Shown piece after piece: positions 25,946-41,377 of a DNA stretch of 64,000 bases. The number at the start of each line of letters is the position of its first letter. Position 1 is the stretch's first letter. The stretch lies in assembly GCF_000203815.1 (NCBI RefSeq), contig NW_004457729.1:3286674-3350673 (forward strand). Reading direction: 5' to 3'. The position numbers and the translations under genes were made by a program. A model generated the notes under the pieces. The model made no database searches, had not been told where the DNA came from, and was given only the letters and a program-made list of their open reading frames with translations. The stretch comes from Cavenderia fasciculata. Taxonomy: Eukaryota; Evosea; Eumycetozoa; Acytosteliales; Cavenderiaceae.

Positions 25946-28900
25946 ATGTCAAATTACTTTAACGTATTACAACAAGATGAAGATGATGATTTTGTAAACA
26001 TTGTAGATGAATCATCAATCGAACAACAAAAGTTAAACATTATTGAAAAGGAAAAGGAAGCAGCTGCTGAAAAGGAGGATGCTACTACCTCGGATAATGT
26101 TCCAACTACTACCGCCACTACCAATGCCACCCCAACCAACACTACTACTACAACAACATCAGATGAAGAACAAGTAACAGAATCATTCCCTTACAAACCA
26201 ACTAAGAGACAAGATTTACAATTCGATGTACAATTTGACTTTTCAGCAGAGTACAATGAAGAAGAATCGGCCAAAGAATTCACTCAACCATGGGTAGTAT
26301 TCTTTGACAAGAAGAACAAAGAAAAAATCACTCCAGCACCCGCAAACCCAGGAGAAAACGATCAATATCTTCAAAATATTAAAAAGATTGGAACATTTAA
26401 CACTTTAAATGTATGTTGTTTGTCAAATCACTATTGAAATGTTGGAACATATATATATTAATATATCTGTTTCTATTTGTCATTCATCATCATTATTATA
26501 GAGTTTAAAGGAATTATGGAAAGGTTTATCATCACCAGTTGACTCTAATATCAGTATCTTTAAGGAAGGTATTGAACCAGCTTGGGAAGATGTAAAGAAT
26601 AAGGATGGTGGAAAATATGTAAGTTGATAGAAATAGATAGATATTTATTTCTACAGAGTATACTAATCAGATGATATCTATTTCTATATTTTCTTTTATT
26701 ATTAGTCTGTAAATTATATGAAAGATCATCCAGAATTTTCAAGAGTATTAAATAATTGGTTTTCTTTATTAACTACAATTGTACAAGAATCAAAATGGGA
26801 ACATTATAGTCAAACTGTAAAGTATACAAACAAAAGTATAGTTATATCTACTTGGTTATAGCTAACAACCTTTTTATTTTTTTTAATACTTTTAGAATGG
26901 TATTGTTTTATCATTTAGAAGTTGGGGTGTTAGTATTAATCTTTGGAATGATAATTCAGACAATCAAGATGCTGTTCAAGCTCTCAAAGATACCATTCAA
27001 AATATATTAAAGGTTAAATATGCCAAATTCTCTTCTCATAATGTAATTATCACAAATTAGATCTGAACCACCAATTCGATTTTGAATACTTATTTCTATT
27101 ATTATTTTTTTATAGAATACAATTTTCTTAAAAACATTAAAAAAGAATGATGAAAAGAAGAAAAAGACAAACAAAATGTATGGAAAGATTGATCACAATT
27201 CAAATTTCCAATCCTATATGCAATCTAATAACTTACAGGTAGAGGATGGATGGAGTATTGTTGGTTCATCGGTCAGCCAAAACAAGAACCCATGGTCATC
27301 GACAAACCCAGCCCGTAAGATCAAGCCAATGCAATCGTCATCTGATGACTTGAGAACTCGTAGAGACCAACAAATCGCTCGTGAAATGCAAATTGCCAAG
27401 GAAATGCAATTGTCCAAGGAGTCTCTATCAAATACTACCTCGTCGTCGTCGTCGTCATCGTCTGAACCAGTCCCAGAGATTCCACAAGGTGTTAATGCCT
27501 GGTCTACTGGTATCCTCTTTGGAAAGGGTCCATCTGACAAGTCTGAACAAACTGTCCCAGAAACTACCACTACCACCTCCACTACCTCTGTTCCATCATC
27601 CAAGATTGTTGAACAACAACCAGCTTGGGGTGCAGTCAAGAATGTCGACTGGCAAAGAGAGATTGAAGAAGGTGAGATTGTCGAGGATGACTCAATTGTC
27701 ATTATTGCCAAGTCAGAGGAAGACAAGCCAGCTGCTGCTGCTGTCGACGTCCAACCAGTTGTTGTTGCTGCTGAAAAACCAAAGGTCAATGCTTGGGCCA
27801 CCGGTCTTTTCTTGACTCAAACCAAGCCAGAGGTTGATACCACCATCAAGGTTATCAGACATGAACCAACCCCACAACCACAAACAGTCAAACAACAAGA
27901 GTTGGAAGAAGGAGAGATTGTAGAAGAACAAGTTGCTGTTGTTCCAGAAAAGGTTGAAAAGAAAAAGACAGTCGAAAAGAAGGAACCAAAGAAATCTAAC
28001 AACAACAAAAAGGAAGAAAAGACAATTGTTGAAAAGAAGGATGAAAAGAAAAAGGATGAAGCTTTCTGGGAGCAAGATAACAACAAAAACAACAATAATG
28101 GTAAAAAAGTCACAACAACCAAAGAAGGAAGAAAAGAAGGAGGAAATCGATCCAGAACTCCCACCACTTCCAACCAAGAAGCCAGATAGAGAAGCTGAGC
28201 GTAAAAAGGAGAGAAGAAACAGATTCATCGTTCCACAAGTTTCATTGTGGGAAAAGAATGATGTTCTCAAGATGATGGAGACTGTTCAAGAGCAAAAGCA
28301 AGAGGAAGAACATATTGCCACCACCACTGCTGCTGCTACTGTTGTTGTCGCTCCAGTTGCCATTCAAGAAAGAGTTGTCATCTCTATCAAGCCAAAGACT
28401 GAAGAGAAAAAGATTGCCATCGAGACACGCAAGCCAACCGAAGAGTGGATCGAAGCCGACAAACCAAAGAAGAAGAAGCAAGTCGAAGAAGAAACTACCG
28501 AACAAGACAACAATACTGCTGAAAAGGTAGTTGAAAAGAAGGTCGAAAAGAAAAAGATTGAAAAGGTTGTCATTACTCCAACTCCAACCAATATCAAGAA
28601 CAAAAATATTTTATCAGCCTTGGAGGTTGAAGCACCGCTAGTTGTTACTCCAAAAAAGAACAAGTCTAATCAAACTACAGCAGTACCAGTTCCAGTTACA
28701 ACTCAAAATACTACCACCACGCAATCAAATAATAACAATAATTCACAACCACAAGTTAAAAAGACTAATACTTCAACAACAACAACAACCACCAACAACA
28801 CTACTACTGCTGCTGCTGTCGCGAAGAAACCAACCACCACTACCAACGCCCCTGTCACTACTACCGCCACTACCAAAAAGACTAACAACAATACCAACAA

Positions 28901-29078
28901 CAAATCAGTTACCAAGGCAACTAATACTACAACAACTACCACTACCAAATCAACATCCAAATCCAAAACCCCATCCGCCATTGAAACCATTTTTACTCCT
29001 TCACTCATTATGAACCTTGGTATTGTATTTGTTGTTTTATTACTTGGATTTATTCTTAAATATCTATTTTCCAATTAA
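25946..29078 (+). CDS. eIF4E-like cap-binding domain with long charged tail and C-terminal membrane anchor (frame change near 28.1 kb)
   Basis: Exons 25946-26410, 26502-26618, 26706-26816, 26896-27042 and 27116 onward are in one frame. Residues about 85-265 form an eIF4E-type domain: PWVVFFDKK, LKELWKGL, IFKEGIEPAWEDVKNKDGG and SFRSWGVSINLW. The Trp-Glu pair that binds the cap (AWED) is present; the first stacking Trp is not evident, as in divergent eIF4E classes. A tail follows with two NAW(S/A)TG plus EEGEIVE repeats and Lys/Glu-rich coiled regions. That frame ends at 28189. The next frame (from about 28,100) continues without a break in character to 29078 and ends in a single hydrophobic segment, NLGIVFVVLLLGFILKYL, typical of tail-anchored proteins. 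A 55-base intron (28101-28155) would restore the frame and give 915 aa; one extra A in a six-A run (28103-28108) is the alternative. If neither holds, the protein stops at 637 aa. Confidence 0.75.
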
Positions 29079-29239: not shown

Positions 29240-31223
29240 TTAAATATTTAATAAAGATAAACAAACAAGAGGTAAAACCAAATTATCTATTTGGGTAGTT
29301 GATGCCTCAATTAAACAACATAGTGTAGAGGTAATAATGATGTGAACCAGTGTGGAGAGGGTAAAAGGAATACCAATAAATGGTAAGAGTACAAGACATG
29401 CCAAAACGGTGCATGTGATACCACCGATGGTTCCTTGTAATGATTTGGAGGTACCAAACATTTTTGTACGTCCATATCTCACTCCAAAATAGGATGCTGC
29501 ACTATCACCAACACCAATAGTTAGCAAACCGGAAAAGATAGAAAGCAGTGGCTTGGTTGTAGAAAAACTAATGTCGAGATAGAATGGGATAACAACAGGA
29601 ATCGAGCATCCAAGCAATAGGTAAATATGGGTAAGTGTAATAACACCAGAATCTCTTGCGTCCAAGAATGCGTCCATGTATCCGGCAATATATTTTCCCA
29701 TCGGAGGAACTCTACCATATTTCAATATTTCTATTAGTATCAATGCACTGATTGATACTCCAAATGATAATGACATGAATGTTCTTTCCATCAATATCCC
29801 TGGTAAAAACATTATAATTGCTAATAAATGGAAATATTTTCTTAATATTATATTTGGTTGTTGTTGTTGTTGTTGTTGTTGTTGATTATTTGTTGTTGAT
29901 GATGTTGATGTTGATGATGATGATGATGATGTTGATTTCTTTGATGTTGATGTAGATGTTGATGTTGATGTTGATATAGATGTAGAGTTGTTATTATTGG
30001 AAGAAGGAGGTGAAAAGAATAAGATGGTAACAAATAGTAATCCAATCCAACATGCAATAACGGTAATTCTATTTCCAACAGATGATTGGTATAACATTTC
30101 GAGTGATTCTGGAATGAGGTAGGTTTGTAGCCAAAGGAATATATTTTGACCAATTAAATGATAGAGTAATGGATAGTAGACTCCAAATATCATAAACAAT
30201 GCAATCGTGTAGAATAATAGTACATGGAGTGAAAACATTGTGTTTGATTGTTGAATCAACGCATTGTTTCGTATAAATGTAGTCAGTCTAGATGTTACTA
30301 TACCAATGAGTATAGCACCAATGATCAATACAACAATTGCAACTTTAATAACTTGTAAATTATCAGTCATAAATTCCAACTCTTTGACACCACCACCACC
30401 AGACCCTGGCCAAGGATTGACATGATCCCATTGATCGTATAAATAGAAAATCGATGGTATTGAAAGTGATGAGATCAACTGACTTATAATAGATGCCTCT
30501 CCAAATGTAAAACTAGTTTGGAAATAATTTAATATTGCTTTGAATAATATTATAAATAATATATTATATCCAATTACAAATATCATTGCTTCTATTCCTA
30601 AAAGGATAGTACAGATAAGTTAATAATCATATAGTGTTATTAATATTATTATCAATTGACATACCAAAAGTAGTATAATCAATTACTATAATGAGTAGAG
30701 AGATTAAGATTAAATGTAGATACTTCTTTTTCAAAATGACAAAGAGTAATGTTACAGATGCTAGGTATGATGCCAAGAGTAGATGTTGTACAGTGACAAT
30801 GGTTGAGAATATATGTGAAGGGATTGAATAGGATGATGACACCATTCCAAGATTAGATGATTTGATCGATGTGTAGACCATTGGCAATAGAGACAGTGCC
30901 AATGGTAGTCCTTGATCCAATCCCTTTTCAGTTCTAGTTGATTTGGTCAATACATGATTAAAGATTGGTTCTTTAATGTAGGATGACAAGATGACTAGAC
31001 CAATATTAATGACAAAGAATATGAGTTCAGATAATGATGATAAAGGTCCATCTATATATCTTTGTTGTTGTTGATCTTGAATACGTTTCAACCTATCGTC
31101 GTCGTCATTGAATAATTTCTTGATAGATGATGATGATGATGATGATTCGTCTCTATGATGTGACCAATACACTAACAAACTACTTATCACTATCAATCCC
31201 AATTCAACTGTTTCTCTTTTCAT
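29240..31223 (-). CDS. dolk: Dolichol kinase
   Basis: Two exons on the minus strand (31223-30665, 30597-29240) give 638 aa. The enzyme makes dolichyl phosphate with CTP at the ER membrane, the lipid carrier for N-glycosylation, GPI anchors and C/O-mannosylation. The C-terminal third carries the family hallmarks: RKYFHLLAIIMF, the CTP-binding GVGDSAASYFGVRYGR, KSLQGTIGG and EASTTQIDNLVLPL. More than ten hydrophobic segments are seen. A Ser/Thr run and a nine-Gln run sit in the loop just before RKYFH, outside the conserved core. Its start faces that of the fucose kinase gene across about 520 bases. Confidence 0.93.
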
Positions 31224-38630: not shown

Positions 38631-41377
38631 ATGAGTCAAAAGGAAAAGGGAGGAAAGAAGCCATACGCTTCATTCAACAACAATAATAACAATAACAACA
38701 ATAACAACAACAACGGAGGAAAGTTAAATAATAGTGGAGGTTATAATAATAAACAATCTTCTCCATCAAACAACAACAACAAGTCATCACCATCAAACAC
38801 CAATAATATCAATAACAATAATAACAATAATAATAATAATGAAGATTTAGAAGTTAAAAAGATGAAGGATAGATCACTTTATATGGCACTTTGTTTGGTT
38901 GGTTATCAAGTATCGGTGACACTAAAGAATGGAGTAACCTATGAAGGTTTGCTTAGCTCTGCAACCACTACTAGTGGTGCTGGTTGGGGCATTGTCATCA
39001 AGATGGCCAGAAAGAAGGAAGTGCCACCACCAGCCATCATCACCACACCACCAACCCCGTTGATGGTCATTGAATCCAAGGATTTCCTCTGTCTTACTGC
39101 CACTGGCGTCGTATTTGATAATCTCTCCACCTACCAACAAGGTTCTGGTCGTGGCAGTGCATCCTTCCAAAGCGACACTGACATCAGCGGACATGATGGC
39201 GTCGTAAGAGAAAGAGAGCTCACTCCATGGATGTCGGATGGCAGCGAACACGAATCACTCGAAGCAAGTGCACTCAACAAACAAAACGCATCATGGGATC
39301 AATTCTCAACCAACGAGAAGCTCTTTGGTGTCACCTCTTCCTATGATGAAGATCTCTACACCACCAGTCTCGATCGTCAATCTGATAGTTATAGAAATAG
39401 ATTAAGAGATGCCGAAAGAATTGCTCAAGAAATTGAAGGTGTATGTATAAATATAAACAAACCAAAATGGTATAGTAGAATTCTATTATTAACCTTTTTT
39501 TTATTCTATAGAAAACATCATCAAATTTACATATGCAAGAAGAAAGAGGACAAGTAAAGGGATCAGATTATGATGAAGAAGAGAGATACAGTAGTGTTGT
39601 TAGACAACCAGATGCAAAGGCTGGAGCTAAACAACAAGCAGGTGGAAACTTATCATCATCGGCTGGAGTATATGTACCTCCAAACAAGAGAAATCAACAA
39701 GTTCAACAACAGACACCACAGCAAACACAATCGGCACCAGTTACGCCACTTACCAAATCATCTTCATCTACTTCATTAAAGGATGAAAATAATACCAAAC
39801 CTGCTGTTGCTACTGCTGGTGCTGCTGCTGCTGTTGGCACTTCTACCACGTCAACTACTACATCATCGACACCAACCAAGGACGAGAAATTGACTCAACA
39901 ACAACAAATCTTTAAGGAATCGGAATCAAACTCTGCCAATTCTCTAAAGACATCTGGTAATGGTATCAATAGCGACAACTCACCAGTTACCAAACTCAGA
40001 TTCCCAGTTAGAGAGAGAACCAATTCGATCGATCACAATGACCTTGTCTCTTCGCCGCGTGATGGTCAGTCTCCTCGTACACTTGCCAACTACACCAAGG
40101 TACGTGCTGCCATTGTATCGGAAAAGATGAGAAACTCTGAGCCACGCTCACCACTCTGCTCGCCATTGGTCTCTGATCCAGTCGGTCTCAGCGCACTCTC
40201 GCTCCACTCTTCCAAGCCTACATTTACCGAAAACACAATCAAGGAATTCAACGAGTTCAAGTTGATAAAGTCAGAGGTTGATCGTAAAGCACAGATGGAG
40301 CAACTCAAGAGCTTTAGTCGCGACTATAACATTAGCAGATCACGTCCATCGTCACCATTGATTGGACCAAATTCACCAAGACTTGCAAATATAACAGCAT
40401 TATCACTTTCTCCAACCAATCTCGACAACAAGGATGACTCCAAGACTGAAGATGTCAAAAAGGAAGCTACAGCAGCAACAACAACCACAGCAACAACGAC
40501 CACTGCAACCACTACAACCTCGAAATTAAAATTAAATCCAAATGCCAAGGCATTTACACCAGGTTCATTGAGTGCCAATGCACCCGTTTTTACACCAAAG
40601 GGGTTGACCCTCAAGCCAGCTGCCATACCAGCCTCTGCACCCCACGATTTCAGTGGCATGCCAGGCGGCGACATTGGAAGAAGCACCTCCAACAACACAG
40701 ATTCGACCACACCCATCAACGAATTGTATTATGAATCAATGAAAAAGAGACAACAAAACCCAGAGAATCCAGAGTCAGTGTCTAGTTATTGGTCCGACGT
40801 GCCATCCTATCGACAACAGTACGGAGGTGGTGAAGACGAACAGTATGGTTCGCCAGCCGGTGGCTATTCCATGCGTCCACCCATCATTCCAATGGGTGTC
40901 GTCCCTATCCCACCATATTACCCATCGCCACCACCAATGGTTGCTCCACCACAAATTAAATCGATGAAAATGCCATACAATGGTCAACCAAGATCCTATC
41001 CACAACATCAGGGAGTTCCTGTTGCATCGAATCAACCCCTTGGCCCTCCTCCATATGCTGTTTTCCAACCACAATTCCCACCCCCATTTGCTGTTCCAGC
41101 CATGTACAATCCTCCACCACCACAACATGGAGTTCCAAAGAGATACTATCCTCACCAAAATTCCTATCAAATGCAACCACATATGATGATCCCACCACAA
41201 AATAACTCTCAGTCACCATCTCCTTCACACCAATCCCCACAAATTCCTTCCCCAACTTCTCCAACTCACAGCCGAATCATAACCTCTCAACCTGCTTTTA
41301 TCCCTGCCGCATATCAAAATTATGGAGTACCTCCAAGATATCAAAACGATCCAAATCAAGGTTATCCACCAAATTAA
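38631..41377 (+). CDS. atxn2: Ataxin-2 homologue
   Basis: Two exons (38631-39440, 39512-41377) give 891 aa. After an Asn-rich start, residues about 78-160 form the Lsm-like domain (LVGYQVSVTLKNGVTYEG; later VIESKDFLCLTATGV). The LsmAD domain follows at about 173-270, ending in RNRLRDAERIAQEIEG. A PAM2 motif (LNPNAKAFTPGS) near residue 615 should bind poly(A)-binding protein. The remainder is Ser/Pro/Gln-rich and disordered, with a Pro/Tyr-rich C-terminus. Ataxin-2 proteins bind RNA, act in poly(A)-dependent translation control and form stress granules. No long poly-Gln tract like the disease-linked human one is present. Confidence 0.94.

What the first reader, a model, noticed from the sequence alone, without database searches (positions are those of the whole stretch)
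25946..29078. eIF4E-like protein with a C-terminal membrane anchor
The sequence shows an eIF4E-type domain, a long repeat-bearing charged tail and a final single hydrophobic segment. Known eIF4E proteins are soluble and about 200 aa. A tail-anchored cap-binding protein could hold capped mRNA at the ER or mitochondrial surface. The first cap-stacking Trp is not evident, so cap affinity may differ.
Basis: partly seen in the sequence, partly recalled or inferred. Interest (0 to 1): 0.85.

Follow-up and report, generated by a model that had tools for sequence, protein, structure and literature searches.

The report
Membrane-anchored cap-binding protein gene (eIF4E-like)
A genome that looks like that of a social amoeba carries a gene joining an mRNA cap-binding domain of the eIF4E type to a long flexible tail that ends in a likely membrane anchor, and a second gene in the same genome has the same design, so these cells may hold capped messages at a membrane.

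Summary
The observation largely holds. Four introns join five exons into a protein whose residues 112-272 match the eIF4E family (Pfam E 9e-29; nearest solved structure human eIF4E type 2, E 2e-14). Cap-pocket positions are kept (Tyr141, Trp183, Glu184, Arg239, Trp248); the 'missing' first Trp is a Tyr, as in eIF4E type 2. A long low-complexity tail ends in one hydrophobic segment (29001-29069). As assembled, that segment lies in another frame: codon usage switches at 28103-28106, beside a run of A. Candidate introns across it look unlike real ones, so I read one gene with a frame break of unknown origin. Independent support: own-genome paralog L003 has eIF4E domain, charged tail and C-terminal hydrophobic segment in an unbroken frame, and shares with this gene an intron not seen in the other four members. 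The tail carries two EEGEIVE motifs, a form of the ARS2-docking EDGEI motif; EEGEIVE matches three times genome-wide, twice here and once in an eIF4G-like ORF. ARS2 is present with its docking lysines. Best reading: tail-anchored eIF4E-family proteins holding capped mRNA at the ER or nuclear envelope. The mechanism is inferred.

The parts
25946..26410 (+). Exon 1: acidic/Thr-rich N-terminal extension and start of the eIF4E domain (Trp116, Tyr141)
   Evidence: Open frame from ATG; phase-0 donor GTATGT; intron position shared with paralogs L003 and L005
26502..26618 (+). Exon 2: eIF4E domain with Trp183-Glu184; an alternative in-frame acceptor 9 bases on would start it at 26511
   Evidence: Pfam 103.4 bits with the first acceptor and 100.3 bits with the second
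26706..26816 (+). Exon 3: eIF4E domain
26896..27042 (+). Exon 4: eIF4E domain with Arg239 and Trp248; the intron before it is shared with L003 and not seen in the other four family members
27116..28189 (+). Exon 5, frame of the eIF4E domain: end of the domain, then low-complexity tail; stop at 28187-28189
   Evidence: codon score positive up to about 28100
27494..27511 (+). First NAW[SA]TG motif
   Evidence: Two matches listed in the whole genome, both in this gene; reversed-pattern control 0
27665..27685 (+). First EEGEIVE (EDGEI-type ARS2-docking motif)
   Evidence: motif definition in PMC9402713 (passages)
27788..27805 (+). Second NAW[SA]TG motif
27905..27925 (+). Second EEGEIVE
27924..28189 (+). 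Overlap in which both frames are open; codon usage switches frame at 28103-28106, beside a run of six A
28107..29078 (+). Second half of the tail in the +1 frame: Lys/Thr-rich, with basic clusters, ending with the stop at 29076-29078
29001..29069 (+). C-terminal hydrophobic segment, the proposed tail anchor
   Evidence: Best 19-residue mean hydropathy 2.70; a hydrophobic window only at the C-terminus in 1 of 135 coding terminal segments sampled, that one being this gene

Best explanation
The locus is one gene for a tail-anchored eIF4E-family protein, one of two such paralogs found in this genome. Shown from sequence: an eIF4E domain with a kept cap pocket, a long low-complexity linker, a single C-terminal hydrophobic segment (in the second frame, after the break), and the same layout in a paralog without a break. 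Inferred: the hydrophobic segment inserts into the ER or outer nuclear membrane after translation, leaving the eIF4E domain on a flexible tether of about 650 residues on the cytosolic side, where it binds m7G caps and keeps selected mRNAs at the membrane, as a local translation or repression platform. Also inferred, with less confidence: the two EEGEIVE motifs dock ARS2, or another reader that also recognises the eIF4G-like protein carrying the third copy, so that capped mRNPs leaving the nucleus are passed to this protein at the nuclear envelope.
For: Pfam IF4E E 9.2e-29. Nearest solved chains are human eIF4E type 2 (2.2e-14) and mammalian eIF4E (2.2e-12), with Tyr141 aligned to the type-2 Tyr and eIF4E W56, and W183/E184, R239 and W248 aligned to W102/E103, R157 and W166 (eIF4E residue numbers recalled). 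Paralog L003: IF4E E 8.2e-37, 616 residues, last exon in one open frame ending in a hydrophobic segment of mean hydropathy 2.55. A phase-0 intron just before the [CN]G of the domain is in this gene and L003, while L001, L002, L004 and L005 read through that point in one frame. Base rate: 1 of 135 coding terminal segments sampled has a hydrophobic window only at its C-terminus, namely this gene. Codon usage is continuous across the frame break. EEGEIVE matches 3 times in the genome, 2 here and 1 in an ORF with a MIF4G domain (E 1.3e-31), with 0 matches for the reversed pattern. ARS2 is present and keeps Lys at the 3 positions of the human triple mutant that loses docking. The next long ORF downstream is on the opposite strand, ending at 29240, so the hydrophobic segment does not belong to a + strand neighbour starting there.
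Against: As assembled, the eIF4E domain and the anchor are not in one reading frame; if the break is real in the living strain, the product is a soluble protein of 637 residues. No transcript or proteome data were available. The looser E[DE]GEI pattern is not enriched genome-wide (41 matches against 35 for the reversed control), so the motif argument rests on the longer EEGEIVE. L003 has no EEGEI motif, so the ARS2 link cannot be general to the pair. [quoted passage not shown] The domain is divergent (22-28% identity to the seven sequences compared) and the tree does not group it with L003 with support. Two phosphate-contact lysines of eIF4E (K159, K162; recalled) are not kept.
Confidence: 0.55

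Rival explanations
1. The frame break is real: the functional product is a soluble eIF4E-family protein of 637 residues, and the anchor half is a relic, or is made only as a rare frame-shifted or slippage product (regulated soluble and anchored forms).
For: Stop at 28187 in the assembled sequence. The switch lies at a run of A, where slippage could occur.
Against: Codon usage after the break is about as coding-like as before it (93.4 against 108.8 log units), with no stop in that frame between 27924 and 29075. A relic would be expected to have lost this. L003 keeps the hydrophobic end in frame.
Confidence: 0.2
2. The anchor directs the protein to the mitochondrial outer membrane, where it recruits mRNAs for local synthesis of imported proteins.
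For: Basic residues lie upstream of the segment (KSTSKSKTPS), and one Lys lies just after the hydrophobic core.
Against: High hydrophobicity and a nearly uncharged end (KYLFSN; HSF in L003) fit ER tail anchors better than mitochondrial ones (recalled rule; sequences).
Confidence: 0.15
3. Two adjacent genes: an eIF4E-family gene ending at 28189, and a separate small gene for a single-pass membrane protein starting near 28098.
For: There is an ATG at 28098 in the second frame, and the frames differ.
Against: No intergenic gap: the open frames overlap by about 260 bases. Codon usage switches frame at a single point. The tail is Lys/Glu-rich on both sides. L003 shows the same layout in a single exon.
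Confidence: 0.05
4. The EEGEIVE motifs are incidental acidic sequence; the tail is only a spacer and the protein acts alone as a membrane cap-binding protein or cap sink.
For: E[DE]GEI as such is not enriched in the genome. The motif is absent from L003.
Against: None of 20000 shuffles of the tail gave two motifs, and 0.43% gave at least one. Genome-wide EEGEIVE is listed only in this gene and an eIF4G-like ORF.
Confidence: 0.4

Closest known systems
eIF4E type 2 / 4EHP (human eIF4E2; PDB 5nvk, 2jgb)
   Same: Best-scoring solved structure; Tyr in place of the first cap-stacking Trp; shared stretch around QNIK.IGTF; W-E of the cap pocket
   Different: 4EHP is soluble and short (recalled). This protein keeps the Trp equivalent to W43, so it does not meet the published class II definition, and it has a tail of about 650 residues with an anchor. 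A more ordinary 4EHP-like paralog exists in the genome (L004, domain E 6.3e-36 to 4EHP)
Canonical eIF4E (class I)
   Same: Family profile and cap-pocket positions
   Different: W56 replaced by Tyr; divergent dorsal helix; membrane anchor. The canonical member of this genome is L001, with 47% identity to mammalian eIF4E
NCBP3 (cap-binding protein with two ARS2-docking motifs)
   Same: Carries two separated EDGEI-type motifs in disordered sequence (PMC9402713, passages)
   Different: NCBP3 uses an RRM-type fold, is nuclear and has no membrane anchor (recalled)
Tail-anchored ER proteins
   Same: Single C-terminal hydrophobic segment with few residues after it and no N-terminal hydrophobic stretch
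   Different: I saw none with an eIF4E domain in the search listings (listings, in part capped; not an exhaustive search)

Membership tests
eIF4E family (PF01652) | Profile match above the curated cut-off over most of the domain | tested here: met
   100.7 bits against a cut-off of 28.7, profile positions 2-151 of 158
eIF4E family (PF01652) | Cap-pocket residues: aromatic stacking residues, the Glu, and the Arg | tested here: met
   Y141, W183, E184, R239 and W248 in the alignment; residue roles recalled; the lysines at K159 and K162 are not kept
eIF4E family (PF01652) | Dorsal Trp (W73) for eIF4G/4E-BP binding | tested here: inconclusive
   Trp161 lies 3 residues off in the favoured splice form and in register with acceptor 26510, but the profile score does not favour that form (103.4 against 100.3 bits)
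eIF4E family (PF01652) | Three-dimensional eIF4E fold | not tested
eIF4E class II (4EHP) | W43 to Y/F/L and W56 to Y/F (definition in PMC3388326, passages) | tested here: not met
   W56 is Tyr (met), but W43 is kept as Trp116
eIF4E class III | W43 kept and W56 to C/Y (PMC3388326, passages) | tested here: inconclusive
   The residue pattern fits, but the eIF4E type 3 structure (4b6u) was not among the 34 matches at E 0.001 or better, whereas type 2 ranked first
Tail-anchored membrane protein | Single hydrophobic segment within about 30 residues of the C-terminus, none elsewhere | tested here: met
   on the two frame parts separately
Tail-anchored membrane protein | Soluble domain and anchor in one continuous reading frame | tested here: not met
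   Frame break in this gene; met in the paralog L003
Tail-anchored membrane protein | Post-translational insertion with the N-terminus in the cytosol | not testable with these tools
   Needs localisation and protease protection
ARS2-docking (EDGEI) proteins | [ED][ED]GE[ILV] in disordered sequence, in several proteins in two or three copies (PMC9402713, passages) | tested here: met
   EEGEI at residues 464 and 544; disorder judged from composition only
ARS2-docking (EDGEI) proteins | An ARS2 partner with the docking lysines (human K719, K722, K734) | tested here: met
   L013 ARS2, Pfam E 1.6e-17; Lys at 3 of 3 positions in the alignment, which I placed by their spacing of 3 and 12 residues
ARS2-docking (EDGEI) proteins | Direct binding | not testable with these tools
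   Needs a pull-down or calorimetry

The most novel reading that the evidence does not exclude
Cap hand-over would then be organised on a membrane surface in these amoebae.
Probability: 0.15. Interest if true: 0.88.

Novelty: new variant of a known kind. Interest (0 to 1): 0.62.

Why it matters
eIF4E-family proteins are generally treated as soluble factors (recalled). Two eIF4E-family proteins built with a membrane anchor would be a direct physical route for mRNA localisation to the ER or nuclear envelope by the cap rather than by the nascent chain, in organisms where such genes can probably be tagged and deleted. The EEGEIVE motif shared by a membrane eIF4E and an eIF4G-like protein makes a link between ARS2 and cytosolic cap factors directly testable.

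Tried and rejected
Intron across the frame break: 154 GT-AG pairs of 45 bases or more would join the frames without an inner stop. The 11 with an intron-like donor (all from 28101) have 7-18% T, against 41-46% T in the four introns of this gene and two of L003; the other 143 were counted, not looked at. Rejected as unlikely. Ordinary -1 frameshifting: the shift needed is +1 (or -2), and the third frame has stops at 28096, 28102 and 28273; not favoured.

Frame breaks elsewhere in the window: the scan listed 8 overlaps, of which this one has the largest weaker side (108.8 and 93.4; the next is 77.0 and 167.0 at 39512). The other seven were not examined one by one; several sit in T-rich, intron-like sequence.

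Tail paralogs: the frame-0 half of exon 5 (27116-28186) matches only itself clearly; three further matches have E 0.03, 0.38 and 2.5. The +1 half was not searched genome-wide. Rfam: none at gathering threshold in the window. tRNA: none. Tree of six paralogs plus two mammalian references: no supported placement of the window gene, with a long-branch warning. The L004 splice attempt failed through wrong offsets; the junction used was read by eye. The gene models of L002 and L005 are approximate at one junction each, and family counts are lower bounds.

Other short motifs: three acidic-aromatic (LIR-like) pattern matches, two of them outside the eIF4E domain (residues 13-19, 323-329); no FFAT, PAM2 or YX4L-phi match in the window protein; too weak to build on. 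Literature: the listings (25 of 83 shown; 25 of 34; 1 of 1; 2 of 2; 10 of 11; 7 of 7) showed no tail-anchored eIF4E; 'transmembrane' does not occur in PMC3388326; PMC5862402 gave nothing on eIF4E type 2; a search on assembly homopolymers was unhelpful; of the 11 papers listed for ARS2 with eIF4G I read passages of two. No structure was predicted and no relatives outside this genome other than solved structures were searched.

Full report
Setting. The window is G000:C5:3286674-3350673 of a 31.0-Mb, 21-contig genome.

Gene model. The ATG at 25946 opens exon 1. Introns 26411-26501, 26619-26705, 26817-26895 and 27043-27115 have GT-AG ends, 43-46% T and phase 0. The spliced frame runs 637 codons to a stop at 28187. 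A second, +1 frame of exon 5 is open from 27924 to the stop at 29076 and carries the hydrophobic end. The next long ORF downstream is on the other strand and ends at 29240; Pfam names no family for it above a cut-off.

eIF4E domain. Pfam IF4E matches residues 112-272 with E 9.2e-29, and no other family reached E 1. phmmer against solved structures gives 34 sequences at E 0.001 or better, all named as eIF4E-type factors; human eIF4E type 2 is first (2.2e-14) and mammalian eIF4E follows (2.2e-12). In the alignment, Tyr141 stands where eIF4E has W56 and eIF4E type 2 has Tyr; Trp116, Trp183-Glu184, Arg239 and Trp248 stand at W43, W102-E103, R157 and W166, while the lysines at K159 and K162 are not kept (residue numbers of eIF4E recalled). 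By the class definitions in PMC3388326 (passages) it is not class II, because W43 is kept; that paper says protist members fit none of the three classes. The dorsal Trp is three residues out of register unless an acceptor nine bases downstream is used, and the profile score does not favour that acceptor.

Frame break. Codon scores trained on 13 long ORFs of the window (7546 codons) are positive in frame 0 in each of the eight 120-base bins from 27116 to 28075, and positive in frame +1 in each of the nine bins from 28076 to the end (the last, short bin only 1.4, with 2.3 in the third frame); the best switch is 28103-28106, beside six A. Candidate introns across it are poor in T. So the two halves look like one gene with one break. 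An assembly error in a homopolymer, a real one-base change, and a regulated shift all remain open; I put most weight on the first, without read data.

The anchor. The best 19-residue window has mean hydropathy 2.70 and starts at 29001; the frame-0 maximum is 0.84. As a control I took 20 regions of 10 kb plus the window: of 135 terminal segments of 150 or more residues with coding score 20 or more, 25 have a hydrophobic window of 2.2 or more, and 1 has it only at the C-terminus, which is this gene. L003 was not in that sample.

A second gene with the same design. The profile finds at least six eIF4E-family loci. L003 (C14, about 1764306-1766294, minus strand) spliced from three exons gives 616 residues with IF4E E 8.2e-37. 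Its last exon runs in one open frame from the eIF4E C-terminal half, through a Ser/Thr/Lys/Glu-rich tail, to a hydrophobic end of mean hydropathy 2.55. L001, L002, L004 and L005 end without such a segment as far as I read their frames; I did not build complete models for all of them. The first intron position is shared by the window gene, L003 and L005. The intron just before the [CN]G of the domain is in the window gene and L003, 2 of 6; the other four read through that point in one frame. A tree does not resolve the group, so the intron and the architecture carry the argument that the two are sisters.

Tail motifs. EEGEIVE occurs at residues 464-470 and 544-550. Shuffling the tail 20000 times gave at least one [ED][ED]GE[ILV] in 0.43% and two in none. 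Written as DNA, EEGEIVE has 3 matches in the genome and 0 for the reversed pattern: two here and one in L039, an ORF with a MIF4G domain at E 1.3e-31 and a Tyr-X4-Met-Trp stretch 61 residues after the start of the motif, resembling an eIF4E-binding site (resemblance recalled). The shorter E[DE]GEI has 41 matches against 35 in the control, so it means little alone. EDGEI-type motifs dock proteins on the zinc finger of ARS2; several proteins have two or three copies, and NCBP3 has two (PMC9402713, passages; ELM entry in PMC10767929, passages). This genome's ARS2 (L013) has Lys at the three positions of the human triple mutant that loses docking. NAW[SA]TG, the other repeated motif, is listed only in this gene, twice. 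L003 has no EEGEI.

Mechanism. Established here at sequence level: family, pocket, tail, hydrophobic end, paralog. Inferred: ER or nuclear-envelope anchoring, cap binding on the cytosolic face, and tethering of mRNA. More speculative: ARS2 docking and cap hand-over. A review describes hand-off from CBC to eIF4E (PMC8699206, passages). [quoted passage not shown]

Verdict. A real and unusual architecture, a new variant of the eIF4E family. The frame break keeps this particular copy short of proof; L003 makes the architecture credible.

Noticed in passing
L003 (G000:C14:1764306-1766294, minus): Second eIF4E-family gene with a long charged tail and a C-terminal hydrophobic segment in an unbroken frame.
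   Followed up: yes
L039 (G000:C5:3500851, minus): eIF4G-like ORF with a MIF4G domain carries the only other EEGEIVE match of the genome search, 61 residues before a Tyr-X4-Met-Trp stretch that may bind eIF4E.
   Followed up: partly
window 26501/26510: Two in-frame acceptors nine bases apart; the downstream one would put the dorsal Trp in register with the paralogs.
   Followed up: partly
window gene residues 13-19 and 323-329: Two acidic-aromatic motifs (DDDFVNI, EDGWSIV) resemble Atg8-binding motifs (recalled), of possible interest in a membrane-anchored protein.
   Followed up: no
L014 (G000:C11:517939, minus): GYF-domain protein resembling GIGYF (recalled), with an NPWAS stretch similar to the NPWSS of the window tail.
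   Followed up: no
L004/L007 (G000:C15 about 460687-461130, minus): A more ordinary 4EHP-like paralog (domain E 6.3e-36 to human eIF4E type 2).
   Followed up: partly
window 29240-31223, minus strand: Long ORFs for hydrophobic proteins, convergent with the eIF4E gene; Pfam gave only matches below the curated cut-offs for the first and none for the second.
   Followed up: no
window 2257, 2618, 15656, 22216, 22978, 36669, 39512: Other places where coding signal changes frame; several look like introns and none was resolved.
   Followed up: no
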